Both the position numbers and the translations under genes were made by a program. This document shows positions 5,771-33,378 of a stretch of DNA of 34,860 bases, one piece after another (position 1 is the first letter of the stretch; every line of letters begins with the position of its first letter). The DNA lies in IMG/VR virus record IMGVR_UViG_3300028557_000110, positions 1-34,860 of that record; one strand, 5' to 3'. Source of the stretch: a virus. Under the pieces are notes generated by a model. It made no database searches and had not been told where the DNA came from. It saw only the letters and a list, made by a program, of their open reading frames with translations.

Positions 5771-6772
5771 ATGAATGAATTAAAAGTCATATCATTATTT
5801 TCAGGTTATGGAACACAAGAATTGGCCCTAGACTACATTGGTGTTGATTATGAAAATGTCGCAAATTGTGATATTCTAAAAATCGCTAATATTGCTTATG
5901 ACTCCTTACATAAAACTACATTGGGCAACTTGGGGGACATTTCTACGGTAAATGAAGACAATTACCCCCAATGTGACCTAATGACTTACTCCTTTCCTTG
6001 TCAAAGTGTGTCAATTTCAGGTAAACAAGAAGGGATAAAAAAAGGTACAAGGAGTGGTTTATTATTTGAAGTCGAAAGAATCTTAACCAAGAACCAACCA
6101 AAATATCTTTTGATGGAAAATGTTAAGAACTTGGTGTCAAATAACCATATTGAAAGTTTCAAAGACCATATTAATTTCTTAAATAGTATTAAATATGGAT
6201 GTGCTTGGAGGGTATTTAATGGCGCTGACTTTGGTTGTCCCCAAAATAGGGAGAGGGTGTTTATGATATCAGTCTATGGAATGACAAATGAAGAGGTAAA
6301 TGTTAAAATGTTAAATGTTGATAAGCATAAAAAGGATAGAATTCCAATGCGGCCATTCATAGAAAATGACATTACAGAGGACTTATTCATTGAATGCGAC
6401 ATTACACCCAACGAACCCAAAAAAGATAGTGTGTGCAAGCTTATAGCACGTAGAAACGATGTGAATTATGACCAAGCAAGACGTATCTATTCTATTGATG
6501 GTTGTTCCCCTTGTTTAACAACAACTGGTTCACCACAGATTATGGTAAATGGAAGAATAAGAACAATTACAGGTAGGGAGGCATATAGATTTATGGGGGT
6601 TAAAGAAGAGGATATTGACAAACTATTATCAACAACTTTAACTACAAAGAATCACGTCGCATTGGCTGGAAACTCGATATGTGTTCCGGTTATGTCAGCA
6701 ATATTCACAGAATTTTTAAGTGAATACATCGTTGAGAAGAAAAAACATTTTGAACAATTAAAATTATTTTAA
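5771..6772 (+). CDS. DNA (cytosine-5) methyltransferase, Dcm/HhaI type
   Basis: 333 residues with the conserved C5-methylase motifs in order: I 'LFSGYGTQE' (9-17, AdoMet binding), IV 'SFPCQS' with catalytic Cys77, VI 'ENV' (116-118), VIII 'QNRERVF' (158-164), then the variable target-recognition stretch with 'SPCLTTTGSPQ' and 'GREAYRFMG' (IX region), and X 'GNSICVPV' (300-307). It transfers methyl groups to C5 of cytosine in a specific sequence that cannot be read from the protein. No restriction endonuclease is adjacent, so it is an orphan enzyme, most simply protecting phage DNA from host restriction. Its stop overlaps the start of the exonuclease gene (TAATG), so it is embedded in the replication operon. 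Confidence 0.93.
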   Translation: MNELKVISLFSGYGTQELALDYIGVDYENVANCDILKIANIAYDSLHKTTLGNLGDISTVNEDNYPQCDLMTYSFPCQSVSISGKQEGIKKGTRSGLLFEVERILTKNQPKYLLMENVKNLVSNNHIESFKDHINFLNSIKYGCAWRVFNGADFGCPQNRERVFMISVYGMTNEEVNVKMLNVDKHKKDRIPMRPFIENDITEDLFIECDITPNEPKKDSVCKLIARRNDVNYDQARRIYSIDGCSPCLTTTGSPQIMVNGRIRTITGREAYRFMGVKEEDIDKLLSTTLTTKNHVALAGNSICVPVMSAIFTEFLSEYIVEKKKHFEQLKLF

Positions 6773-8269: not shown

Positions 8270-9649
8270 ATGTCATCTAACAAAAATTTTGATTACTTGG
8301 GGAGCTCATTCCAAATTCAACTGATTAATCAAATTGTATTAGATAATAACTTTTCAAGGTCAATCGTTGATGTTTTAGAACCAAATTACTTCGAGAACAA
8401 ATACTTTAAACTCATCGTTCAGATGATCAAGGAATACAATCAAAAGTGGGACAGCGTTCCCACTTTTGACACCTTGGAACAAATTACTAAAGCGGAATTC
8501 CAACAAGAGAATGTCGCTAAAATCGTAATTGATACAATTAAAAAGATTAAGGAAGCCCCATTATCTGGTGGTGAATTTGTTCAAGAGAAAGCCTTAAAGT
8601 TCTGTAAACAACAAGAATTACAGAAAGCAATTACCAAAGCACAAAAGGTCATTGACGGGGGTGAATTTGAAAGTTATGATACCCTTGAAGAAATGATTAG
8701 AGAAGCCTTACAAGTAGGTGTCAGAGATGATGGAATGTTAAATGTATTCTCCAATTTGGATGATGTATTGAATGAAGATTTCAGACATCCAATACCAATG
8801 GGAATTGGTGGTATTGACCGATTATTAAAGGGTGGTTTGGCAAAAGGTGAAATAGGCGTGGTACTTGCACCAACAGGTGTTGGTAAATCAACATTCCTAA
8901 CTAAGATAGCTAATCATGCTTTTAATTTGGGTAATAACGTACTTCAAATATTTTTTGAGGACAATCCCAAGGTTATTCAAAGAAAACATTTTACCTTGTG
9001 GACTAAAGTTCACCCTGATGATATGTCAAACAAAAAGGATGAAGTTATCAAAAAGGTTAAAGAGATTGAAGATAAAATGGATAATCAACTTATCCTAGAA
9101 AAACTTCCATCTGATACGATGACAATGAGTCAAATCAAAAACATTGTCAGAAAGAAGATTGCTGAAGGGGTTAAGATTGATATGGTATTATTGGATTATA
9201 TTGATTGTGTTGTACCTGAGAAGAACTTGGGTGACGAATGGAAATCAGAAGGTTCAGTTATGAGAGCATTTGAAGCAATGTGTCACGAATTGAATTTGGC
9301 TGGATGGACGGCAACACAGGGTAATAGAAGTTCAATATCATCTGAGGTGGTAACAACGGATCAAATGGGTGGTTCGATTAAGAAGGCTCAAGTTGGTCAC
9401 GTTATTATAACGGTTGCAAAATCATTACAACAAAAAGAAATGAAGTTAGCGACAATTGCGGTTACTAAATCAAGGATTGGAGATGATGGAATTATCTTTG
9501 AAAATTGTAAGTTTGATAATGGTATGTTGGATATTGATACAGAATCATCCGTTACATTCTTAGGACATGAGGAACAAAAAGAAGAAAACAATAGACAAAG
9601 AATTAAAGATTTATTAGAAAAAAGAAAACAAAGAGAAAATACAAATTAA
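8270..9649 (+). CDS. DnaB-like replicative helicase (T4 gp41 type)
   Basis: 459 residues. The N-terminal ~150 residues are helical, including '[14 protein letters not shown]...[21 protein letters not shown]', the DnaB/gp41-type N-domain. The RecA-like ATPase domain has Walker A 'APTGVGKST' (200-208), 'FFEDNP' with the likely catalytic acidic residue (~228-233), Walker B 'MVLLDYID' (305-312), and the 'TATQGNR' and '[13 protein letters not shown]' segments (sensor and DNA-loop region). The enzyme forms a hexamer that unwinds the fork 5'-3'. Length is close to T4 gp41 (475). No separate primase gene is visible in this window. NrdB starts 2 nt after its stop. Confidence 0.92.
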
Positions 9650-9651
9650 TT

Positions 9652-10602
9652 ATGACTGAAAAAATATTAACAGAGAATCCAAATCGTTTTGTGATTTTCC
9701 CCATTCAATACAATGACATATGGGAATACTACAAACAACATCAGGCTGCATTTTGGACAGCAGAAGAGGTTGACTTGACTGGTGACATCAGAGAGTGGCA
9801 AAACTTGTCAGAGAACGAACAATACTTCATTAAAAACATATTGTCGTTCTTCGCGGCATCTGATGGTATTGTAAATGAGAACTTGGCTGAGAACTTCTAC
9901 CGTGAAGTACAATACCCTGAAGCGAAATTTTTCTACGGATTTCAATTAATGATGGAAAATATCCATTCTTTAATGTATTCTTTATTAATTGATACTTATA
10001 TATCTAATCCAAAGGAAAAGGACGAATGTTTCAATGCGATTGATAGATTACCTGCGGTTCAAAAGAAAGCCAAATGGACTTTAGATTGGATTGAGAAAGC
10101 ATCATTCCAAGAACGATTGGTGGCATTTGCTGCGGTTGAGGGAATATTCTTTTCAGGGTCATTTTGTTCAATATTTTGGTTGAAATCAAGGGGGGTTATG
10201 CAAGGTCTTTGTAATGCAAATTCATTGATTTTCAAAGATGAAAACCTACATTGTGATTTCGCAATTCATCTTTTAAATAATCACGTTGAGAACAAACCAA
10301 GTGAAAAAAGAATAAAGGAAATATTACTTTCTGCTTTGGAGATTGAGAAAGAGTTTATCACAGAATCACTACCAGTGTCATTAATCGGAATGAATTCCAA
10401 TTTAATGAAACAATATTTGGAATTTGTTGTTGATGGTTTGTTGGTTAAATTTGGTTGTAGTAAACAATTTAATGTTGAACAGCCCTTCAAGTTTATGGAA
10501 CAAATTGCAATTGAAACCAAAGGTAACTTCTTTGAATCAAGAACTATGGAGTATCAAAAAGCAAAACTTAACGAAACTATTTCATTCACAGACGATTTTT
10601 AA
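9652..10602 (+). CDS. nrdB: Class I ribonucleotide reductase small (beta) subunit
   Basis: 316 residues. It holds the di-iron/tyrosyl-radical cofactor that starts ribonucleotide reduction in NrdA. All expected ligands are visible: Asp41 in 'EEVDLTGD', Glu102 and His105 in '[10 protein letters not shown]', Glu163 in 'VEGIFF', and Glu197 and His200 in 'DENLHCD'. The radical Tyr109 is seven residues after Glu102, the spacing of E. coli E115/Y122. The C-terminus 'ISFTDDF' is the usual acidic/aromatic tail that docks on NrdA. It lies 2 nt after the helicase and 9 nt before nrdA, so the two subunits are co-transcribed. It supplies dNTPs for phage replication. Confidence 0.95.
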
Positions 10603-10611
10603 AAATTAATT

Positions 10612-12195
10612 ATGTCATTAAGAATTCAAAAAAGAAATGGGGAGGTTGTTGCCTTTAACCCCACCAAAATACAAACAAGAATTAAACGAGCAAGTAAAAC
10701 CCTAAATGTTAATTCAGATCAGATATTCATTAAGGTAATTACATCAGTTCCAACTGAGGGTATAATCTCAACAAAACAATTGGATAAGTTGATTTATGAG
10801 ATTGCTGCGTCATACACTGGAAGTCACCACGATTATTCAAGGTTGGCTTCCTCTGTTGCAATATCCTCATATCACAAAGAAACCAATGAAAGTTTTAGTC
10901 AAACAATGAAATCATTGGCTAGTGTTGGAATTGTTAATGAAGAGTTAATGAATACAATTAACCAATATGGTGAATCAAACATTGACGAGGTTATTAATCA
11001 CGAAAATGATTATAACTTTGATTACTTTGCTTGGAGGTCATTATATGAAATGTATTTGTTAAAAACTCCTGAAGGTGTTACAGTTGAAAGACCCCAACAT
11101 ATGTATATGAGGGTCGCTCTATGGGTAACAAAATCATTTGACGAAGCCATTGAATACTACAAATCTTTATCAAATCAACTTATATCTCCCGCCACACCTA
11201 TTATGATTAATTCTGGTACAAAGATTCCACAATTGGCATCTTGTGTATTACATTTTAATGATGATGATAGTAGAGAGGGGTTATTAAACACAATGACTGA
11301 CATATCAACATATTCTGCTGATGCCGCTGGTATTGGACTTTGTATGTCAAATATTCGTAGTAAAGAAAGTAGATTGAGTACATCAGGTGGATATGCTGGT
11401 GGATTATTAAAATATCTTAAAATTGTTAATGAATCATTAAGATTTTTTAATCAACAAGGTAGAAGACCAGGTTCAGCTGCGATATATTTAGAACCTTGGC
11501 ATAAGGACATATTTGACCTATTGGACATCAAAAAGAACACTGGAGCTGAAGAACTAAGAGCTAGGGATTTATTCACTGCATTGTGGATTCCTGACAACTT
11601 TATGAGAGCGGTGAAGGAAGATGGTGAGTGGTATTTATTTTGTCCCAATGACATCAAGAAATCAGGATTACCGGCATTACACGAGGTATATGGGGATGAA
11701 TATGAATATGTATATAATAAGTTAGTTGAATTGGGTATTGGTAAAAAAGTTAGAGCTCAGGATGTGTGGAGTAAGATAATTGAATCCCAAATTGAAACCG
11801 GTGTTCCTTATCTATCATCAAAAGATAATGCTAATAAAAAAAGTAACCATCAGAATATTGGTACAATTAAACAATCTAATCTTTGTTGTGTTGTTGGAGA
11901 TACTATTTTAACTATTAAAAGAGAAAATGAAGAAATTCAAAATTTACCAATTAGTGAAGTTGTTGAATTAATTGAACAATCAGAAAAATTAATGGTATTA
12001 ACCGAAGGTGGTAAATTTAGTCTAATAATTGCTGGTATGTTAACAAGAAAAAATTCAGATGTCCTTGAAATTATTGATGAAAATACCGGATTTAGTATAA
12101 AATGTACTTCAGATCATTTAATTTTTACAAAAAATAGAGGTTATGTTAGAGCCAATGAATTAAAAGAAGATGATATTTTAGAATTGTACAAATAG
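10612..12195 (+). CDS. nrdA: NrdA N-terminal half fused to the N-terminal fragment of a split intein
   Basis: 527 residues. Residues 1-~90 are an ATP-cone ('IQKRNGEVVAFNPTKI', 'YSRLASSVAISSYHKET'); the catalytic barrel follows, with 'QLASCVLHF' carrying the first redox Cys. The NrdA part ends at residue 425, the Cys of 'KQSNLC', which corresponds to the thiyl-radical Cys of class I NrdA (N-x-C-x-E loop). Residues 426-527 are an intein N-fragment starting 'CVVGDTIL' and containing block B 'CTSDHLIF'. A stop at 12193-12195 follows. The remaining NrdA lies in a separate gene starting at 12584, so active enzyme requires protein trans-splicing. The spliced product would have 425 + 380 = 805 residues, near the size of other NrdA proteins. 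Confidence 0.93.
   Translation: MSLRIQKRNGEVVAFNPTKIQTRIKRASKTLNVNSDQIFIKVITSVPTEGIISTKQLDKLIYEIAASYTGSHHDYSRLASSVAISSYHKETNESFSQTMKSLASVGIVNEELMNTINQYGESNIDEVINHENDYNFDYFAWRSLYEMYLLKTPEGVTVERPQHMYMRVALWVTKSFDEAIEYYKSLSNQLISPATPIMINSGTKIPQLASCVLHFNDDDSREGLLNTMTDISTYSADAAGIGLCMSNIRSKESRLSTSGGYAGGLLKYLKIVNESLRFFNQQGRRPGSAAIYLEPWHKDIFDLLDIKKNTGAEELRARDLFTALWIPDNFMRAVKEDGEWYLFCPNDIKKSGLPALHEVYGDEYEYVYNKLVELGIGKKVRAQDVWSKIIESQIETGVPYLSSKDNANKKSNHQNIGTIKQSNLCCVVGDTILTIKRENEEIQNLPISEVVELIEQSEKLMVLTEGGKFSLIIAGMLTRKNSDVLEIIDENTGFSIKCTSDHLIFTKNRGYVRANELKEDDILELYK
11887..12192 (+). other. Split intein, N-terminal fragment (IntN, 102 aa)
   Basis: Begins with nucleophile Cys1 in 'CVVGDTIL' (block A), followed by Hint-fold strands including 'VLEIIDENTGFSIKCTSDHLIF' with the block B T-x-x-H, and ends 'GYVRANELKEDDILELYK' before the stop. 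The order and the ending resemble phage NrdA/gp41-type split inteins known from marine metagenomes. The DNA here is more AT-rich than the flanking NrdA sequence. Confidence 0.9.
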
Positions 12196-12207
12196 TCGTT
12201 TTAAGTA

Positions 12208-12215
12208 TATTTATA
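12208..12215 (+). promoter_or_regulatory. TATTTATA motif next to the GIY-YIG ORF
   Basis: An exact copy of the motif seen before structural genes, but ending only 3 nt before the ATG at 12219. A -10 box here would start transcription after that ATG, so it could not serve this start; it may instead feed the downstream NrdA C-half, or be chance in AT-rich DNA. Confidence 0.15.
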
Positions 12216-12218
12216 TAT

Positions 12219-12581
12219 ATGAGATATTATGTTTATATATTATTAGATGATATGATTAAAGGTCGATACGACAATGAATATTGTTCTATAGAATATAGAC
12301 CTTTTTATGTTGGTAAAGGAGATTCTAAATCTAAAAATAAAACGGAACGACATTTAAAACATTATAAAGAAACAAAACAAAATTTAACTAAAATTGTTAA
12401 TCCTCATAAATTTAATAAAATTAAAAAATTACAAGAAAATGGTTTTGAACCCAACTTTTTAATTATTTATGATTCTGTAACTGACGCTGCTGAAGCAATA
12501 AATGGAAACCCATCAACTATAACCCAAGTTTGTAAAGGTAAAAGAAAAAAACATAGAAATTTAACATTTAAATACGTTTGA
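12219..12581 (+). CDS. Small GIY-YIG homing-endonuclease-like ORF with IENR1/NUMOD-type tail, probably internally deleted
   Basis: 120 residues between the two nrdA pieces. Residues 3-9 'YYVYILL' and 28-34 'PFYVGKG' match the GIY and YIG elements, with Arg44 and His45/His48 following. From about residue 84, 'YDSVTDAAEAINGNPSTITQVCKGK' matches the helix-turn-helix repeat (IENR1/NUMOD1-like) found at the C-terminus of phage homing endonucleases. The usual middle part of the nuclease, which carries the catalytic Glu, is missing: the two parts are joined at 'YDS'. It is therefore probably a deletion derivative and may be inactive as a nuclease. It has its own frame, different from both NrdA halves, and its stop lies 2 nt before the ATG of the C-half. 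Confidence 0.75.
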   Translation: MRYYVYILLDDMIKGRYDNEYCSIEYRPFYVGKGDSKSKNKTERHLKHYKETKQNLTKIVNPHKFNKIKKLQENGFEPNFLIIYDSVTDAAEAINGNPSTITQVCKGKRKKHRNLTFKYV

Positions 12582-12583
12582 AT

Positions 12584-12682
12584 ATGATTAAAATAAATAA
12601 ATTAACTGAAAAACAAGATGTATATGATATACAAGTACCTGAAACCTCATGTTTTTATGGGAATAATATATTAGTTCATAAT
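12584..12682 (+). other. Split intein, C-terminal fragment (IntC, 33 aa)
   Basis: 33 residues with block F 'VYDIQVPETSCFYGNNILVHN' and block G His-Asn at the end, followed by Cys+1. All residues needed for splicing (Cys1 in IntN, T-x-x-H, terminal His-Asn, Cys+1) are present. Fragment sizes of 102 and 33 residues match the natural split site of known phage split inteins. Confidence 0.9.
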
Positions 12683-13825
12683 TGCGAAATTTATCAATTC
12701 ACTGACCAAAATACCACTGCAATCTGTACTCTATCTTCAATGGTTTTAAAAAACTTTGTTAAAGATGGTACATTTAATTTTGAATTACTATATAGAGAAA
12801 CGAGAAAGGTTGTTAGGGCATTGAACAAGGTTGTTGATATTAACAATTACTCAACATTAAAAGGTGAAAAGGGTGGAAGAGAACAAAGAGCAATTGCAAT
12901 TGGAACTCAAGGATTAGCTGATGTATTCTATTTAATGGATTATGAATTCACTTCAGATGAAGCAAAACAACTTAATAAGGATATCTTTGAAACAATTTAT
13001 TATGCCGCGATTAAAGAGAGTAATAAATTAGTTAAAAGTGGTGAATACAAAGCATATGATTTCTTTGAAGGTTCACCAATGTCAAAAGGCACATTCCAAT
13101 TTGATATGTGGGGATTGAAAGAATCTGAATTATCAGGTAGATGGCCTTGGGTTTTATTAAAAGATAGTGTAATTAAATATGGTATATGTAATTCATTGTT
13201 TACTGCTCAGATGCCTGTTGCAAGTTCTGCTAAGATTACTGGTTCTTACGAAATGACTGAACCAGCTCACTCAGCAATATTCAATAGACGTGTTGTTGGT
13301 GGTGAGATTACGATTGTTAACAAGTATCTAATTGCTGACTTTGAGAAACTTGGAATATGGGGAGAAGACCTTAAAAATGAAATTATCTACAACGAAGGTT
13401 CTATTAAAAACATTAATTTTAACAATTATTTAGATCCTGAAGATAAGAAATATAATCAAAAGGTTAAACGTATTGAACATTTGATTAAGAAGTATAAAAC
13501 AATATGGGAGATATCACAAAGAGAATTGATTGATATGGCAGCAGATAGAGGACCATTTATTGACCAATCACAATCAATGAATATCTATATGGGTAATCCC
13601 ACTTTAACAAAAATAACATCATCACATTTCCACGCTTGGCAGAAAGGATTGAAGACATTGTGTTATTATATTAGAACTAAGGCAATATCAACTGGGGCGA
13701 AACATTTGGCGATGGACATATCAAAGATGGGCAAACCAAGAACAACACCAACATTACCTCACGTTGAACCATTAAAAACTAAACCAAACGATTCTCCATT
13801 TGATTGTTTCGGTTGTTCCTCTTAA
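12584..13825 (+). CDS. nrdA: C-terminal fragment of split intein fused to NrdA C-terminal half
   Basis: I chose the ATG at 12584 rather than the in-frame TTG at 12578, which overlaps the stop of the preceding ORF. The first 33 residues are intein-C, ending 'ILVHN'; the NrdA part begins at Cys (12683) with 'CEIYQFTDQNTTAICTLSSMVL', which restores the catalytic Glu and the second redox Cys. Further visible: 'QMPVASSAKITGSYEMTEPAHSAIFNRRV', the Tyr-Tyr pair of the radical path in 'LCYYIRTKA', and a C-terminal 'CFGC' redox pair that accepts electrons from thioredoxin or glutaredoxin. It has its own start and a different frame from the N-half. A strong terminator follows. Confidence 0.93.
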   Translation: MIKINKLTEKQDVYDIQVPETSCFYGNNILVHNCEIYQFTDQNTTAICTLSSMVLKNFVKDGTFNFELLYRETRKVVRALNKVVDINNYSTLKGEKGGREQRAIAIGTQGLADVFYLMDYEFTSDEAKQLNKDIFETIYYAAIKESNKLVKSGEYKAYDFFEGSPMSKGTFQFDMWGLKESELSGRWPWVLLKDSVIKYGICNSLFTAQMPVASSAKITGSYEMTEPAHSAIFNRRVVGGEITIVNKYLIADFEKLGIWGEDLKNEIIYNEGSIKNINFNNYLDPEDKKYNQKVKRIEHLIKKYKTIWEISQRELIDMAADRGPFIDQSQSMNIYMGNPTLTKITSSHFHAWQKGLKTLCYYIRTKAISTGAKHLAMDISKMGKPRTTPTLPHVEPLKTKPNDSPFDCFGCSS

Positions 13826-13833
13826 AAAACATT

Positions 13834-13860
13834 AATCACGACATTATGTCGTGATTTTTT
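13834..13860 (+). terminator. Rho-independent terminator after nrdA
   Basis: A perfect 10-bp stem AATCACGACA/TGTCGTGATT (13834-13843 with 13847-13856), 3-nt loop, then a T run to 13860. It ends the replication block 9 nt after the NrdA stop and insulates it from the late structural block. Confidence 0.9.
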
Positions 13861-13869
13861 GTTTTATGG

Positions 13870-13877
13870 TATTTATA
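13870..13877 (+). promoter_or_regulatory. Candidate late-promoter motif TATTTATA before the gp25 gene
   Basis: TATTTATA preceded by GG lies directly after the nrdA terminator, 29 nt upstream of the ATG at 13907. A start of transcription near 13884 would give a leader of about 23 nt. A second, weaker copy (TATTTATC, 13896-13903) is too close to the ATG to serve it. Confidence 0.45.
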
Positions 13878-13906
13878 GAAATAATTCAAACATTATATTT
13901 ATCAAT

Positions 13907-14365
13907 ATGGCAGAAGGAACAACATATGGGATAAATTTCCCTTTTAGAAATTCATATCAAGGTAATTATTTATCTTTATCACAAACAAGTGATGAAGAAA
14001 TTAGAAGTAATCTTATTCATTTACTATTAACTAGAAAGGGGACAAGATATTATTTACCTGACTTTGGTACAAGATTATATGAATATTTATTCGAACCTTT
14101 AGATGGACCAACTTTTTCGGATATTGAGGCTGAAATTAGAGACTCAGTGGAAGAATATTTACCAGGATTAACATTGACTAATATATCAATCACACCGGCA
14201 TCAGAGGGAGAGGAAGACAAAGGTTTTTTTGTTAATGATGATGGTCAAAAAGAGTTTAGAGTTACAAGTATAGGACAAATGGAACATACAGCTAAAATTA
14301 GAATTGATTATACAATATCCGATTCAGCATTTAACACAAGTGATTTTATAATTATTAATATTTAA
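13907..14365 (+). CDS. Baseplate wedge protein, gp25/gpW family
   Basis: 152 residues. The gp25/GPW family signature is clear: 'RSNLIHLLLTRKGTRYYLPDFGTRLYEYLFEPLDG', followed by an alpha/beta half with 'IRDSVEEYLPGLTLTNISI'. The protein joins the sheath to the inner baseplate in contractile tails and contacts gp6, encoded 2 nt downstream. I use the ATG at 13907 ('MAEGTTYGINFPF'): an in-frame TTG at 13859 also exists, but it lies inside the terminator T-run and upstream of the putative promoter. It is the first gene of the late tail block. Confidence 0.93.
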   Translation: MAEGTTYGINFPFRNSYQGNYLSLSQTSDEEIRSNLIHLLLTRKGTRYYLPDFGTRLYEYLFEPLDGPTFSDIEAEIRDSVEEYLPGLTLTNISITPASEGEEDKGFFVNDDGQKEFRVTSIGQMEHTAKIRIDYTISDSAFNTSDFIIINI

Positions 14366-14367
14366 AT

Positions 14368-16209
14368 ATGTCAAACAAAAAAATATCGTATACAACTAGA
14401 GATTTTCAACAAATCCGAACAGAGTTAATCAACTTTACAAGAACGTATTATCCTGAATTAATTGATAACTTTAATGACGCATCAATATTTTCTGCATTAT
14501 TGGATTTAAATGCTGCAGTTTCCGATAACTTGCAATTTAATATTGATAGAAGCGTTCAAGAAACAATTCTTCAATATGCACAACAAAGGTCATCAATTTT
14601 TAACATCGCAAGAACGTATGGGTTAAAAATTCCAGGACTTAGACCATCTGTCGCCTTGGTTGATTTCTCAATAACAGTCCCAGCATTTGGAGATAAAGAA
14701 GATTTAAGATATTGTGGTATATTAAGAAGAGGAGCACAGGTTAATGGTGGCGGACAATTATTTGAAACAGTATATGACATTGATTTCGCATCGGCAATTG
14801 GTGGAGATGGTTCACCAAATCGTTTAAAAATCCCAAATTTTGACTCAACCAACCGATTATTAAAAAATTATACTATAACCAAGAGAGAGACGGTTGTTAA
14901 TGGAGTAACGAAGGTATTCAAACGTGTTGTAACACCAAATGATGTTAAACCATTTTTTGAATTATTTTTACCTGAAAGAAATGTGTTAGGAGTTACAAGC
15001 GTAATATTAAAAGATGGAACACAATACGCAAGCATACCACCCGAACAAGAATTCCAAGGATTGGATGATAGATGGTATGAAGTAAAAGCATTGATTGACG
15101 ATAGGGTTTTTATTGAAGACCCAACCAAAGTATCTGATAATCCGGGAATAAAAGTGGGAAGATATTTACAAACAAATACAAAATTCATTACTGAGTACAC
15201 ACCAGAAGGATTTTTAAAAATGATATTTGGGGGTGGAACACAATCGGCTGACGAACAACTGGCTGAATTTGCAAGAAATGGGTTTAAATTAAATCTTTAT
15301 AAGTACTCCAATAATTTCGCATTAGGAAGTACCTTAAAAGGTAACACTACCTTGTTTATTCAATATAGAGTTGGGGGTGGTGTTGGTAGTAACTTAGGTG
15401 TTGATGTTATTAACAATATCGGAACAGTGTCTTTTGCTGTTAATGGACCCTCTACTAGTGTAAACACGAGTGTTATAAATTCATTATCATGTGCGAATGT
15501 AACTGCGGCAATCGGTGGGGCAGGAGCACCTACAAATGAAGAAATCAGAAACTTGGTCGCGTTTAACTTTGCGGCACAGAATAGAGCGGTAACAATCAAT
15601 GACTATGAATCAATTATCAGAACAATGCCATCACAATTTGGGGCTCCCGCAAAAGTGTCAATAACAGAAGAAAATAACAAATTAAAGATTAAAATGTTAT
15701 CATATGATGATAGTGGGAGACTAACCGAAATCATATCAAACACATTAAAAAGTAATGTTGCTAACTATCTATCTAACTATAGAATGATTAATGATTATGT
15801 TTCTATTGAAACTGCGAATGTAATTGATTTAGGATTTAATATTGATGTCGTGTTGGACAACACTCAAAATCAAGGGGCGTTTGTTACTCAAGTAATTGAT
15901 ATAGTTTCAACCTACATGGAACCAGGTAATAGAGAAATGGGTCAAAATGTAAACATATCCGAAATAAGAAGATTAATTCAGTCTCAAAATGGTATATTAA
16001 CAGTATCGGATATTCAAGTATTCAATAAAGTTGGTGGTCAATATTCATCATCACAAACATCACAAAGATACTTGGATGCAACAACCAAACAAATTGAATT
16101 AATTGATGATACTATTTTTGCCGAACCTAGTCAAACGTATCAAATTCGTTTTCCAAATAAAGATATCAATGTGAGGGTTAAGAATCTTAAGACTACTAAT
16201 TTTACATAG
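14368..16209 (+). CDS. Baseplate wedge protein, gp6/gpJ-like
   Basis: 613 residues. The N-terminus 'YTTRDFQQIRTELINFTRTYYPELIDNFNDASIFSALLDLNAAVSDNLQFNIDRSVQE' is the characteristic start of gp6/baseplate-J proteins. The central region carries the 'VGGGVGSNLG' and 'GGAGAPTNEEIRNLVAFNFAAQNRAVTINDYESII' segments, the usual pattern of the J-domain ending ('R.V...DYE..'). The C-terminal part resembles the J-type trimerisation arm. In contractile tails it forms the ring of the baseplate wedge together with gp25 and gp7. It lies 2 nt downstream of gp25, the same pairing as in T4-like and P2-like phages. Confidence 0.9.
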   Translation: MSNKKISYTTRDFQQIRTELINFTRTYYPELIDNFNDASIFSALLDLNAAVSDNLQFNIDRSVQETILQYAQQRSSIFNIARTYGLKIPGLRPSVALVDFSITVPAFGDKEDLRYCGILRRGAQVNGGGQLFETVYDIDFASAIGGDGSPNRLKIPNFDSTNRLLKNYTITKRETVVNGVTKVFKRVVTPNDVKPFFELFLPERNVLGVTSVILKDGTQYASIPPEQEFQGLDDRWYEVKALIDDRVFIEDPTKVSDNPGIKVGRYLQTNTKFITEYTPEGFLKMIFGGGTQSADEQLAEFARNGFKLNLYKYSNNFALGSTLKGNTTLFIQYRVGGGVGSNLGVDVINNIGTVSFAVNGPSTSVNTSVINSLSCANVTAAIGGAGAPTNEEIRNLVAFNFAAQNRAVTINDYESIIRTMPSQFGAPAKVSITEENNKLKIKMLSYDDSGRLTEIISNTLKSNVANYLSNYRMINDYVSIETANVIDLGFNIDVVLDNTQNQGAFVTQVIDIVSTYMEPGNREMGQNVNISEIRRLIQSQNGILTVSDIQVFNKVGGQYSSSQTSQRYLDATTKQIELIDDTIFAEPSQTYQIRFPNKDINVRVKNLKTTNFT

Positions 16210-29200: not shown

Positions 29201-29458
29201 GTAAGTGGTAACACCATTGTTCAGAATGAATTTTTCACCGGAAACACATATTCAATAGCTCCATTTAATGCACCAACTGAAACACAATATTATAACGCAT
29301 TGATTTCAGCTTTAAACTCTTTAAAATCCTTGGGATATGATTATTACTTAACTGATAGTAATACGGTTGTTGTTTACAATCAAGTGTGTTCAACTGACGA
29401 TAGTGGATTTACATTTAGTATAGATATTGGTATAAACTTTAAAATTTATTGTAATTAA
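26288..29458 (+). CDS. Baseplate wedge protein with gpI-like domain (gp7 counterpart)
   Basis: 1056 residues, close to T4 gp7 (1032). Residues ~341-484 match the P2 gpI-type tail protein pattern: 'KIEKILQIFGRSFDDVQKFI', 'IPSQLLKNLAQTLGWN', 'YFRNIILNSAYLFKSKGTRKSIEGLLRLVGAPEALVEF', with the diagnostic 'KGTR..I..LL...G'. In contractile systems gpI/gp7 joins gp6 and gp25 to form the core wedge, and both of those are encoded upstream. The N-terminal ~340 residues are beta-rich. The C-terminal region has a flexible 'GGSVKNNNGGFKGGVPLNRP' linker, then a ~150-residue Cys-containing domain that may anchor the following adhesin-like protein. The next gene starts on its stop (TAATG). Confidence 0.75.
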   Translation: MAKFTCPPQPPTGEGTFSDNLVGFQLVTGGGLTQGNFNFTTAVTEKVNRNFSTGVFSNPMSLDSMGITDINQAKAIIENNFKIYPNFDLSQVTNFVLYGSMVKRISSAITKIINYFPAAIESTSISIDYTSGVTAENIVYNVVANETSFRLNLSRIRNPFEIDYTVNSTRNLELREIKVSPLRDMTTQYVNYSLYYLGNGYNVTRIVSTSGLTSGYLTIYVSGNPFLGQTTIYNDIVIRPNDFVVAKVFNEDLDDVENFLLNRDITPLYTSTFKVPIEAEDGTVYIQNRQITFPLYGRWNIDILTSNFDRYLTSLNEIAVYYDNQQTNLVSRFLATGAFTEFDTDDRKIEKILQIFGRSFDDVQKFITSLSFVNSVNYTVRNDIPSQLLKNLAQTLGWNTNITPISNDNFLTSIFGDTNTDTSNFSGVAIRSTPDELNYQYFRNIILNSAYLFKSKGTRKSIEGLLRLVGAPEALVEFNEYIYLADQRINLSEFDTYWGLISGGTYIQETPILEEGNIFSIQGIEYTGFTSTNSITSVNLNLEDYPIDSQGYPRTPEDTESYFFQIGGGWFEQTPQHRGPEVINLTFSIFTGQSTVLQTNLLPPSYGQIYLNRYRRFPFMNLGFRLTSQIDNNKSWFDTETGLRSNLDGNLNARYFVDDERLVLNVKNVDIFMNPAQGLLYDVWSMSRQDNYPIPNQGLNYIQPTACDPNPIKYYPNKGGVDWTIINPQPKRKTFFEFAQTFWQNTINVRNRQFSSNGKTGGYPTLDSIYWRYIQSEEIANLPNNNFKYENMIEYVNGMGDYWIRLIEQMVPATTIWNTGIRMENSIFHRQKFVWRRQEGCEIVPNDKGGAQEFPPIKDPKTSPSISTPPSGVEVPSIKFNDGGSVKNNNGGFKGGVPLNRPSTLITDVFQYDCSAESVECQIYSWQSNPQILTLTGVLGSILNNYLSVNGYELNDCLLNTLQSNWYIELKVSGNTIVQNEFFTGNTYSIAPFNAPTETQYYNALISALNSLKSLGYDYYLTDSNTVVVYNQVCSTDDSGFTFSIDIGINFKIYCN

Positions 29459-32400
29459 TGGCTTGTGATTTAGGAGTTGGAATTAATGGTATAACAGGGG
29501 ATTGTTCAAATAGTAGTTTAGGTGCTTTTGATATTAGTATTGATGGGACAGCGCCAGATTACATAATCCAACGGATTAGCCCAACAACAGGAACAACTGT
29601 ATTAGGTCTTGGTATTACCGGATATTCGCAAACCGGACTAACTGCTGGAACGTATACCTTTAATATTGTTGATAGCTGTTCTTCAGGGAATACGTATTTT
29701 TTGGTTAATATTAATATATCGTCAGGAACTTGTGTATCTATTGACTCCACAAATACAACTTGTGGTTTTGACAATGGGTCTATAACCGCAACAACTAATA
29801 ATTTATACAATAACTCAATATTTTATTTATATGAAGTTAATGATGGGATATCCCAAGTAATATCACTACCAGTTAATACTGCCGTTTTTAATACTTTGTC
29901 GGCAGGGACATATTATGTAATTGCTGATGATGGAGGAGGCTGTTCAGGTAAAAGTCAGAGTTGTATAATTAAAAGTTCAACAACATTAAATTTTGGATTG
30001 TATCAGGTTAATAATTCAGCTTGCGCTGTAAATTTAGGTTCATTGTATGTTACGGGACTAACAGGAACTCCACCATATACATATCTTTGGTCTAATGGAC
30101 AAACAACACCATCTATTACCGGATTATCTGATGGGTCATACTCTGTTGTAGTTACCGATAGCTTTGGATGTAGTACGTCTCAAGGAGCTATAATAGAATC
30201 AGTACCCATATTAACAAGTTTAATTTTAATTGATACTCAACCAACTTGTTTTTCAGCCACAGGTGAGGCGACTGTTTATATTTCAGGGGGAACTGCCCCA
30301 TATCATATACAAGGTTCAAATGGTGAAATTGTGATAACATTCTCACCATCTTATACATTCACCGGATTACCTGCGGGTTACTTCTCAACCACAGTCACAG
30401 ATGCTGGATTATGTCAATCAACTGCGTACACGACATTATTAACCCCTAGTGCTATATCTGTTGTTACATTTGATGTTACAAACTCAAATTGCAATAATTT
30501 TGATGGTCAAATATCAATATCTATATTCGGTGGGACAGCACCATATACATATACTTTAACAGATTCTCTTAATAATTCACAAATTGGGATACAACCATTA
30601 CAAAATGGTGGATTTATATTTACATCTTTAAGTTCTGACACTTATACCATAACAATTACGGATTCATTAAACATATGTCCTTATTCAGGTACTGTGGTTA
30701 TTAGTAATAATGTGTTATTTGATTTATCGGCAATAACATCTGGCGCTACTTGTAATTTACCGAATGGAGAAGTTGTATTATCAATTACTAGTGGAGGAAC
30801 TGGACCATATAGGTATGAAATTAATGGTTATGACATTTTTGGTCAAACAGGATTAACTTATACATTCCAAAATTTATTACCAGGGAATTATACTGCAAAA
30901 GTTACGGATGTTAATTTATGTCAACAGATTTTACCAATAACAATACCAAATCTAAGTAATCTAAATTATGTTTTATCATCATTGAATCCTTTATTTTCAA
31001 ATGATGGTGAAATCAGTATTTTCATTACAGATGGAACTCCACCATTTGCCGTTAATTGGAGTCCAAATGTAAATGGACAAACAGGTCTAACGATTAATAA
31101 TCTTTCAGCAGGGACTTATTCTGTTACAATTACGGATGCTTATGGATGTACATTGAGTAGAAGTATAACATTAATAGGTTATACGTTATTGCAATCAAAT
31201 CAAACTTATACCATTTCACAAGGATTATTAACCAATCAGACACAAAATCTAAGAAAAGGTCCACAACAGATGTTAATAGAAGGATTTAAGGACTTGACAT
31301 CTGGTGACACAAATTGTATTCTAAATTCAGCGGTATTTGAGGTTGAAGTGACATTATCTGGTGTTACAACATCAAGTACAGGTCAAACCTTTTATACTGC
31401 AACAACATTAAACGATTTTCCTGCGGATAATTTATATTACGATACGGTTAAGATTTTGTTATTGAGTTATTCCGGAATAACATATGTAGATATTGAACCA
31501 ATTGAAAATAAAATAACGATTGGAACAATAAGTAATCCACCACAAGAATATATTGATTCTGAAGTAATTGTTGGGGTTAAAGTTTATTATGATATAAGTT
31601 GTGAAGTATGTGCTCTACCAGTTTTAGCTCCATTTATATTTACGGTAGATACAACAAAAATTAGTTTAGGGTCAACAAATATTGATACGTTTAAGTTACC
31701 TTTAGTAAGTGGTGGTTCATATAGTTTTGATGTGGATTGGGGCGATGGTGTAGTTGAAACAATTAATACTTGGAATGATCCAAATGTTGAACATACATAT
31801 ACCGCAGTTGGTACATATGAGGTATCAATTAGTGGACAATTAAGTGGTTGGACATTTAATAATAGTGGAGATAGAGGAAAATTAATGGAGATTAAACAAT
31901 GGGGTATTTTAGAATTAGGTGATTCACCAGGTCATTTCTATGGTTGTGTTAATTTGGAATTGAGTGGGACTACAGATTTCATTGACTTATCAACAACATC
32001 AACATTAGTTCAAACATTTAGAAATTGTACTTCAATTACAACAATCAATAATGCTGAGTTTTGGGACGTTTCAACAATTACTGATATGACTGAAACATTT
32101 AGAAATGCGACATCATTTAATCACCCTATTGGTTCTTGGGACGTATCAAATGTTACAACTACACTTAGAATGTTCCAAACCGCATTTGATTTTAATCAAG
32201 ATATAAATAATTGGGATGTATCTAACTTAGTTAATTCAGCAAATATGTTTACTTCGGCAACATCATTTAATCAACCGTTGAATAATTGGAATGTATCCAA
32301 TATAACAAATATGTCTGGAATGTTTTCAACTGCAATAGTATTTAACCAACCACTGAGTGGATGGAATGTGTCTAATGCAACTAACATGAGTAATATGTTC

Positions 32401-32745
32401 GCAAATGCGACATTATTTAATCAAGATATAAGTGGATGGGATGTATCTAATGTAACAAATATGTTAAGTATGTTCGCAAATGCGACATTATTTAATCAAG
32501 ATATAAGTGGATGGGATGTTTCAAATGTTACAAGTATGTCATTTATGTTAAACACTTGTGGAATAAGTCAATCAAATTATGAATCACTTTTAGTTGGATG
32601 GAATTCCTTACCTTCATTACAAAATGGTGTGTTTTTGGGGGCTCTTGGGTTACAATATCAAATAGGTAGTGCCGCTGACACCGCCAGATCTAATATCATA
32701 GGAACATATTCTTGGACAATATCGGGAGATATTGCTGTACCATAA
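29458..32745 (+). CDS. Chimeric adhesin-like virion protein: SprB-type repeats, PKD-like domain, BspA/DUF285 repeats
   Basis: 1095 residues. Residues 1-~575 contain about seven SprB-type repeats, each with a 'PPYTYLWSNG'-like centre and an ending such as 'GLSDGSYSVVVTDSFGC'. Residues ~577-720 form a separate domain. Residues ~721-797 are PKD-like ('FDVDWGDGVVETIN', 'HTYTAVGTYEVSISG'). Residues ~800-1037 are BspA/DUF285 leucine-rich-type repeats of 25 residues ('FNQDISGWDVSNVTNMS.MF'). SprB repeats are known from gliding adhesins of flavobacteria, and DUF285 repeats from bacterial surface proteins. As the last gene of the tail block it is a good candidate for receptor binding. There is no secretion signal, as expected for a virion protein. 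A terminator overlaps its stop. Confidence 0.85.
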   Translation: MACDLGVGINGITGDCSNSSLGAFDISIDGTAPDYIIQRISPTTGTTVLGLGITGYSQTGLTAGTYTFNIVDSCSSGNTYFLVNINISSGTCVSIDSTNTTCGFDNGSITATTNNLYNNSIFYLYEVNDGISQVISLPVNTAVFNTLSAGTYYVIADDGGGCSGKSQSCIIKSSTTLNFGLYQVNNSACAVNLGSLYVTGLTGTPPYTYLWSNGQTTPSITGLSDGSYSVVVTDSFGCSTSQGAIIESVPILTSLILIDTQPTCFSATGEATVYISGGTAPYHIQGSNGEIVITFSPSYTFTGLPAGYFSTTVTDAGLCQSTAYTTLLTPSAISVVTFDVTNSNCNNFDGQISISIFGGTAPYTYTLTDSLNNSQIGIQPLQNGGFIFTSLSSDTYTITITDSLNICPYSGTVVISNNVLFDLSAITSGATCNLPNGEVVLSITSGGTGPYRYEINGYDIFGQTGLTYTFQNLLPGNYTAKVTDVNLCQQILPITIPNLSNLNYVLSSLNPLFSNDGEISIFITDGTPPFAVNWSPNVNGQTGLTINNLSAGTYSVTITDAYGCTLSRSITLIGYTLLQSNQTYTISQGLLTNQTQNLRKGPQQMLIEGFKDLTSGDTNCILNSAVFEVEVTLSGVTTSSTGQTFYTATTLNDFPADNLYYDTVKILLLSYSGITYVDIEPIENKITIGTISNPPQEYIDSEVIVGVKVYYDISCEVCALPVLAPFIFTVDTTKISLGSTNIDTFKLPLVSGGSYSFDVDWGDGVVETINTWNDPNVEHTYTAVGTYEVSISGQLSGWTFNNSGDRGKLMEIKQWGILELGDSPGHFYGCVNLELSGTTDFIDLSTTSTLVQTFRNCTSITTINNAEFWDVSTITDMTETFRNATSFNHPIGSWDVSNVTTTLRMFQTAFDFNQDINNWDVSNLVNSANMFTSATSFNQPLNNWNVSNITNMSGMFSTAIVFNQPLSGWNVSNATNMSNMFANATLFNQDISGWDVSNVTNMLSMFANATLFNQDISGWDVSNVTSMSFMLNTCGISQSNYESLLVGWNSLPSLQNGVFLGALGLQYQIGSAADTARSNIIGTYSWTISGDIAVP
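32394..32519 (+). repeat. Perfect 51-bp direct repeat within DUF285 coding region
   Basis: The 51 bases at 32394-32444 are identical to those at 32469-32519, offset by 75 bases (one 25-residue protein repeat). Neighbouring repeats of the same gene are diverged at the DNA level, so this pair looks like a recent duplication or gene-conversion event. Confidence 0.92.
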
Positions 32746-32780
32746 AATAAAACCCCACCTAAAAAGTGGGGTTTTATTTT
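32744..32780. terminator. Bidirectional terminator between convergent genes
   Basis: A perfect 15-bp stem (32744-32758 with 32766-32780), 7-nt loop, with a C4/G4 core flanked by A/T-rich arms that provide a T-run in both directions. It contains or touches the stop codons of both convergent genes (32743-32745 on +, 32779-32781 on -). Confidence 0.93.
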
Positions 32781-33378
32781 ACCATATATTTTCTTGTTTC
32801 ATATAACCTAGAACACAACAATAAGCGTCACTCATATCGAAATTCTCTTTTTTGAGTGTATTGTTTTTGGTATAGACCCAATTAATTTGGGGTTCTTTCT
32901 TTGCAACTTGTTCCCAAATGATTTGTTTCTTATCACAATCTTTTGGGAAACCACCAAATAAAACAAGTTTCTTTTTATCATTTTCTTTAACCAACCAAGG
33001 AAAAGCATTCTTCCTTGAATTATAGGTTGAGATATATTCTGGTACTAAACCTAGGGCATCATAAATTTCCTTTGAAATAATGGTGTTAAAACGTAACAGA
33101 GTTTGTATCGTATAAACATTATTACTATTAAGTAGAGGTTCTTCAATTACTACCTTTGTAATACCAAGTCCTTTATATTGTTCCAATTTTGTTTTAAAGA
33201 TTTCAGTTTTAAGAAATAATTCCTTAATTTTGTTATCTTCCTTTGGTTTGACAACAGGAGAAATATGAGTTAATTCCAAAAGTTCTTTTGATGCGATATC
33301 AAAAAGTGCCCAACCAATAGTCTTGGTGGACACATCTAAACCTAGTATTTTGGGGGTTGTTTCAATTGTTTTAGACAT
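32779..33378 (-). CDS. RuvC-like Holliday-junction resolvase (RNase H fold)
   Basis: 199 residues. RuvC-type catalytic acids are placed as expected: Asp15 in 'ILGLDVSTKTIGWALF', Glu79/Glu80 in 'VVIEEPLLNSN', and Asp181/Asp184 in 'FDMSDAYCC'. It would cut four-way junctions and branched DNA before packaging, a job done in T4 by the unrelated endonuclease VII. The region between residues 90 and 175 is basic ('SRKNAFPWLVKENDKKK', 'CDKKQIIW') and suits DNA contact. It lies 2 nt downstream of the fibre-like gene on the same strand and convergent with the tail block. Confidence 0.85.
   Translation of the reverse strand: MSKTIETTPKILGLDVSTKTIGWALFDIASKELLELTHISPVVKPKEDNKIKELFLKTEIFKTKLEQYKGLGITKVVIEEPLLNSNNVYTIQTLLRFNTIISKEIYDALGLVPEYISTYNSRKNAFPWLVKENDKKKLVLFGGFPKDCDKKQIIWEQVAKKEPQINWVYTKNNTLKKENFDMSDAYCCVLGYMKQENIW

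What the first reader, a model, noticed from the sequence alone, without database searches (positions are those of the whole stretch)
10612..13825. Fractured nrdA with a natural split intein placed directly after the catalytic cysteine
The N-half ends ...'KQSNLC' + intein 'CVVGDTIL'; the C-half has intein '...ILVHN' + 'CEIYQF'. The junction splits the N-L-C-x-E active-site loop between the thiyl-radical Cys and the catalytic Glu, so no activity is possible before trans-splicing. The three ORFs (IntN half, middle ORF, IntC half) are in three different frames and the C-half has its own ATG. All splicing residues are present. The arrangement matches the 'fractured gene' organisation described for phage split inteins from environmental DNA (gp41, NrdA, NrdJ types).
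Basis: partly seen in the sequence, partly recalled or inferred. Interest (0 to 1): 0.88.

Follow-up and report, generated by a model that had tools for sequence, protein, structure and literature searches.

The report
Phage enzyme gene split by intein
A virus of bacteria carries its DNA-building enzyme (ribonucleotide reductase) as two genes that a self-splicing protein element should weld together at the active site, with the crippled remains of the DNA-cutting gene that spread the element lying between them; the arrangement is of a known kind, but relatives show every stage of its invasion and decay.

Summary
nrdA is broken after the radical cysteine (KQSNLC|C...HN|CEIYQF) by a split intein: IntN 102 aa, IntC 33 aa, predicted 805-aa product. 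This is the published "fractured gene" kind; same-site examples also exist, unlabelled, in cultured phages (Klebsiella KP13-7, Campylobacter WX1; Yersinia TG1 one codon away).

New here is the life history. Intein-free alleles 95% identical to the predicted product exist (L010-L012). Seventy-three empty alleles read SNLC-Asn-EI; every occupied one reads SNLC|Cys-EI, so the +1 Cys codon apparently travels with the element. The window matches an occupied, distant allele (L005) for ~111 nt before and ~27 nt after the insertion, and its empty sister elsewhere: a co-conversion tract. L004/L005 elements are ~100% identical in 84%-identical exteins.

The "middle ORF" is a GIY-YIG homing endonuclease that lost 786 nt in frame between 12-nt repeats, removing the conserved Glu and Asn; its sister L003 has a nonsense codon. 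Other relatives have intact, remnant or no nuclease, yet the intein stays split.

"No activity before splicing" is unproven: phage Aeh1 NrdA works in two pieces. Trans-splicing itself was not tested. New member of a known kind; 0.45.

The parts
9652..10602 (+). nrdB, RNR small chain, directly upstream (context)
   Evidence: Pfam Ribonuc_red_sm E 2e-106
10612..11886 (+). nrdA N-extein, 425 aa, ends ..KQSNLC (radical Cys is the -1 residue)
   Evidence: Pfam ATP-cone, lgN, lgC 1-213; PDB alignments to RRM1 and Rnr1
11887..12195 (+). IntN, 102 aa plus stop (C1, TxxH)
   Evidence: Intein_splicing E 8e-4; NrdJ-1 8ubs E 4e-17 for IntN+IntC joined; alignment A2
12219..12581 (+). Residual GIY-YIG + NUMOD homing endonuclease, 120 aa, internally deleted (intact relatives 382-390 aa)
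   Evidence: Alignment A1, Pfam, 12-nt repeat seam
12461..12472 (+). AATTATTTATGA: the deletion seam; two copies 786 nt apart in the intact gene of L005
12584..12682 (+). IntC, 33 aa, own ATG 2 nt after the endonuclease stop; ends ..ILVHN
   Evidence: Intein_splicing E 9e-5; spacing table
12683..13825 (+). nrdA C-extein, 380 aa plus stop, starts with +1 Cys (CEIYQF)
   Evidence: Pfam lgC 213-523 E 2e-86
11776..11886 (+). Upstream co-conversion tract (about -111 to -1), like occupied L005 rather than sister empty L010
12683..12709 (+). Downstream co-conversion tract (about +1 to +27), includes the Asn-to-Cys +1 codon

Best explanation
This is a fractured nrdA of a T4-like phage (probably of Bacteroidota). 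A mobile split intein entered the active-site loop codon of an intact nrdA by homing: an endonuclease encoded between the intein halves cut an intein-free allele in a co-infecting phage, and repair copied the element, its +1 Cys codon and some flanking sequence. The two halves are made as separate proteins; IntN and IntC associate, splice in trans and give an 805-aa NrdA with the loop SNLC-CEI. In this phage the endonuclease has since been cut down by a 786-nt in-frame deletion between 12-nt repeats and has lost the conserved Glu and Asn of the GIY-YIG domain, so the element should no longer home by its own enzyme; the intein is kept because the phage needs NrdA. Shown by sequence: anatomy, site, empty alleles, co-conversion, deletion. 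Inferred: trans-splicing, past nuclease activity, present nuclease inactivity, need for NrdA.
For: Anatomy. Empty uninterrupted alleles aligning end to end without gap, 95% (L010-L012). 73 of 73 empty alleles Asn, all occupied Cys at +1. Co-conversion tracts. Element ~100% identical between L004 and L005 whose exteins are 84% identical. Occupancy changes at least 6 times on the extein tree, 5 forced by strong branches, never 1 in bootstraps. Middle ORF: intact 382-390-aa GIY-YIG relatives in several distinct loci, structure search hits viral GIY-YIG proteins; deletion seam. No other RNR large chain in the 34.9-kb record or in the 58-kb record that holds the identical locus. No RNA intron by Rfam. 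Intein residues remain intact in alleles whose nuclease is lost.
Against: No splicing data. Window IntN has Ser where its close relatives have Pro in CTPDH, outside the TxxH residues. The -1 residue is itself a Cys, an unusual neighbour for the splicing centre, though shared by all 'after'-register members. Records are partial, so an intact nrdA elsewhere in the genome is not excluded. GIY-YIG identity rests on mostly sub-threshold Pfam hits, phage homologues at 30-40% identity and a moderate model (pLDDT 70, no PDB match).
Confidence: 0.9

Rival explanations
1. The two halves never splice and work as a non-covalent two-chain NrdA, as reported for phage Aeh1.
For: Aeh1 NrdA split by mobE is active as separate polypeptides (PMC2988022).
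Against: Aeh1 has no intein. Here all intein catalytic residues are kept and about 100 and 33 extra residues would sit in the radical loop if not removed; splicing residues are kept across strongly diverged relatives.
Confidence: 0.05
2. The locus is a dying pseudogene and the phage relies on host RNR.
For: The nuclease is broken in the window and its sister; Campylobacter phage nrdA has been described as degenerating (PMC3653736).
Against: Both extein halves are fully open and 95% identical to intact alleles; nrdB is intact upstream; intein residues are preserved.
Confidence: 0.04
3. Assembly or frameshift artefact of a contiguous intein.
For: Contiguous inteins do occur at the analogous site in L233-L235 and L290.
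Against: 100% identical locus in three further records; the same split in dozens of loci with an ORF of its own in the gap.
Confidence: 0.01
4. Compatible with the main explanation, about the middle ORF only: the shortened GIY-YIG/NUMOD protein is kept for a job, such as a DNA-binding autoregulator or to keep the C-half translationally coupled.
For: In-frame deletion, DNA-binding-type end retained, stop 2 nt before the IntC ATG; such abutting or overlapping is nearly universal in this family; a second truncated nuclease (L271, 94 aa) keeps the same stop/IntC overlap as its full-length relatives.
Against: Relatives L007, L008, L260, L275 have no ORF there at all and L009 only a remnant; one in-frame deletion has a 1-in-3 chance.
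Confidence: 0.15

Closest known systems
Fractured genes with split inteins and free-standing endonucleases (Dassa et al. 2009, NAR 37:2560; cited by PMC3653736; paper itself not held, content known from memory)
   Same: Phage DNA-synthesis gene cut in two by a split intein with an endonuclease gene between; nrdA is among the reported targets (7 nrdA cases in ocean data according to PMC3653736).
   Different: Window's nuclease is a deleted GIY-YIG; insertion is after, not before, the radical Cys as in the NrdA-2-like loci; empty alleles and co-conversion are visible.
NrdA-2 split intein (sequence recalled from memory; 98% to L260)
   Same: Same host gene and loop, IntN/IntC of similar size, GIY-YIG nuclease in L243-type relatives.
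   Different: One codon upstream: SNL|C..HN|CNEI, so the radical Cys is the +1 nucleophile.
NrdJ-1 split intein (PDB 8ubs)
   Same: Closest solved structure by sequence, E 4e-17 for the joined 135-aa intein.
   Different: By its name from NrdJ, a different RNR gene; about 114 of 135 residues aligned.
Klebsiella phage KP13-7 and Campylobacter phage WX1 nrdA (OP617745, OP654737)
   Same: Same register SNLC|C / TNLC|C..HN|CEI, split, other ORFs between; in KP13-7 a GIY-YIG above Pfam cut-off.
   Different: Distant NrdA, further breaks in nrdA, not annotated as intein.
Phage Aeh1 nrdA split by mobE
   Same: nrdA in two genes because of a homing endonuclease.
   Different: No intein; pieces work unspliced (PMC2988022).

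Membership tests
Fractured gene (split intein + free-standing endonuclease) | Conserved enzyme gene broken in two with IntN and IntC at the break | tested here: met
Fractured gene (split intein + free-standing endonuclease) | Endonuclease ORF between the halves | tested here: met
   A GIY-YIG-derived ORF is present but has lost conserved catalytic residues
Fractured gene (split intein + free-standing endonuclease) | Trans-splicing restores the protein | not testable with these tools
   Predicted product aligns without gap to intact alleles, but splicing was not assayed
Mobile intein (homing) | Sporadic occupancy, empty alleles, co-conversion | tested here: met
GIY-YIG homing endonuclease (active) | GIY/YIG strands, conserved Glu and Asn | tested here: not met
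   Window ORF keeps residues 1-85 but lacks invariant E96 and N114 of A3; intact relatives have them
NrdA-2 type insertion (radical Cys as +1) | SNL|C..HN|CxEI | tested here: not met
   Window is SNLC|C..HN|CEI
Group I intron | Intron RNA at the break | tested here: not met
   No Rfam match beyond chance in 9000-14500
Class Ia NrdA | ATP cone, all-alpha and barrel domains, NLCxE loop, nrdB neighbour | tested here: met

The most novel reading that the evidence does not exclude
The split intein at the radical cysteine has become a control switch: enzyme activity appears only after two separately translated halves meet and splice in a suitable redox state, so NrdA is timed by splicing, and the stripped endonuclease ORF is kept to tune translation of the C-half.
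Probability: 0.07. Interest if true: 0.8.

Novelty: new member of a known kind. Interest (0 to 1): 0.45.

Why it matters
The fractured-gene arrangement is known, but this locus and its relatives give, at one codon of one gene, uninvaded alleles, a full element with nuclease, a deleted nuclease, a nonsense nuclease, a remnant and a bare split intein that is still split. That makes two open questions testable: how endonuclease-free natural split inteins arise, and whether a split, once made, is ever repaired. It also offers a set of natural split inteins with Cys at both -1 and +1 for protein engineering, and shows that two insertion registers one codon apart, using either the enzyme's own radical Cys or an imported Cys as nucleophile, recur across phage NrdA.

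Tried and rejected
AlphaFold of the full 382-aa endonuclease was poor (pLDDT 50.6) and not used; the 126-aa domain model (pLDDT 70.5) found nothing in PDB but GIY-YIG proteins in the viral library. Scar search: I looked for uninterrupted QSNLCCEI as a trace of intein loss; it is common, but the loci returned are distant NrdA (best ones under 30% identity), and yeast Rnr1 has it too, so it is no scar evidence. GTDB genomes gave only weak hits. RNA intron rejected. 'After' register as a single origin: neither shown nor rejected (p 0.19). Dassa 2009 could not be read. The NrdA-2 sequence was recalled from memory; it matched real loci at 98% but its label rests on memory. The 12-nt repeat is not rare in this AT-rich gene; its weight lies in the seam falling exactly on it.

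Full report
The window (a 34,860-base IMG/VR virus record) has nrdB at 9652-10602, then an ORF 10612-12195 whose first 425 residues are the N-part of a class Ia NrdA ending KQSNLC and whose last 102 residues are IntN; an ORF 12219-12581; and an ORF from ATG 12584 to 13825 with 33 residues of IntC and 380 of NrdA. The halves match one Pfam barrel model without loss (1-213, then 213-523). The joined 805-aa product aligns over most of its length with human and yeast RNR large chains; the broken loop is SNLC|CEI against SNLCTEI (human) and SNLCCEI (yeast). From general knowledge of class I RNR, the first Cys is the radical cysteine and the Glu is catalytic.

The locus is real. Three other records are 100% identical to it over 5.7, 7.5 and 10.4 kb; they may come from related samplings, so they are separate assemblies rather than independent populations. 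Neither the window nor the 58-kb record with the identical locus has another RNR large chain, but neither is known to be complete.

Relatives at the same site. A search for the N-half gave 80 loci: seven with the intein and 73 with uninterrupted nrdA. L010, L011 and L012 are 95% identical to the predicted product without a gap. The residue after the radical Cys is Asn in all 73 uninterrupted alleles and Cys in all occupied ones. The simplest reading is that the +1 Cys, required for splicing, came with the element and stays in the spliced enzyme. Because yeast Rnr1 has Cys there, the substitution is tolerable.

Mobility. At sites where donor-like L005 and empty sister L010 differ, the window is mostly L010-like until 111 nt before the insertion, then mostly L005-like to the insertion, L005-like for 27 nt after it, then mostly L010-like again. 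L003, the window's sister, has a shorter tract. L004 and L005 have ~100% identical IntN and endonuclease although their exteins are 84% identical, and identity climbs from about 77% to 100% over the last 450 nt before the insertion. On an extein tree occupancy changes at least six times, five forced by well-supported branches, and no bootstrap tree has one change. Together these are the marks of homing.

The middle ORF. Several distinct relatives carry a 382-390-aa ORF in the gap. It resembles LEM-3-type GIY-YIG plus a NUMOD-like end (mostly just under Pfam cut-offs; NUMOD-like just over in L005, NUMOD3 over in L222), phage GIY-YIG proteins such as a putative homing endonuclease of BcepSaruman (E 1e-8) and, by structure, many viral GIY-YIG proteins. 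The window's version keeps residues 1-85 and the last 35 or so, joined exactly at AATTATTTATGA, a 12-nt direct repeat 786 nt apart in L005. The invariant Glu96 and Asn114 are gone. The sister L003 carries GAA-to-TAA at codon 183. L009 keeps only the last ~95 codons; L007 and L008 have no nuclease and only 30 and 14 nt between halves. Still the intein is split in all of them.

The wider family. With an IntN alignment, 80 viral loci were kept, almost all in the RNR active-site loop and in two registers one codon apart: SNLC|C..HN|CEI (this one) and SNL|C..HN|CxEI, where the radical Cys itself is the splicing nucleophile. The NrdA-2 sequence I recalled belongs to the second (98% to L260). Most have GIY-YIG or other endonuclease-like ORFs; KP13-7, L243 and L255 pass the Pfam GIY-YIG cut-off. 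The endonuclease stop and the IntC start nearly always overlap or abut (-47 to +19 nt), suggesting translational coupling, an inference. L271 of the NrdA-2 group has a truncated 94-aa nuclease with the same stop/start overlap, parallel to the window. The family is rare in cellular genomes.

Comparison with the known. Fractured genes were described from ocean data, with seven nrdA cases (PMC3653736; the original paper was not available). The window is a member by every feature that can be tested; splicing cannot be tested here.

Verdict: a genuine, well-supported new member of a known kind, with an unusually complete invasion-and-decay series around it.

Noticed in passing
L007:6735-8673; L008:6600-7123; also L222, L224: A second nrdA intein at MPVA|C..HN|S: contiguous in L008, split in L007 with a 493-aa ORF between (no confident Pfam match; ends IIIEYNGKAWHPNW, possibly Vsr-like), so nrdA there is in three pieces.
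   Followed up: partly
L009:6030-6110: Between IntN and the endonuclease remnant lies a stretch resembling, from memory, the 3' end of IS200/IS605 tnpB elements (GTGGAGGCGTTGCGGTTACGCAAGTCAATGAAACAGGAATC plus hairpin). No match in phage or plasmid collections or Rfam.
   Followed up: partly
L277:6001-7500: Split intein at GTNP|C..HN|CGEV, probably a different RNR class, with a 348-aa ORF between that weakly matches Phage_endo_I (E 1.5e-4, below cut-off): a possible other nuclease type in this role.
   Followed up: no
L233-L235:6001-6453 (L235 4380-4832); L290:6001-6435: Contiguous inteins of about 145-151 aa at the analogous RNR site, possible unsplit counterparts of this split family.
   Followed up: no
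L271:3564-3845: Truncated 94-aa GIY-YIG ORF in an NrdA-2-like locus with the same IntC overlap as full-length relatives: a parallel to the window's deletion.
   Followed up: partly
L090 (OP617745 28849-37145): Klebsiella phage KP13-7 nrdA is in four pieces with two split inteins and several endonuclease-like ORFs, annotated largely as hypothetical proteins.
   Followed up: partly
window 29458-32745: 1095-aa protein with SprB repeats and DUF285 domains, surface- or tail-fibre-like, pointing to a Bacteroidota host.
   Followed up: no
window 5771-6772: C5 cytosine DNA methyltransferase between uvsX-like and exonuclease genes.
   Followed up: no
window 32779-33378 (-): RuvC-like Holliday junction resolvase on the opposite strand to the gene array.
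   Followed up: no
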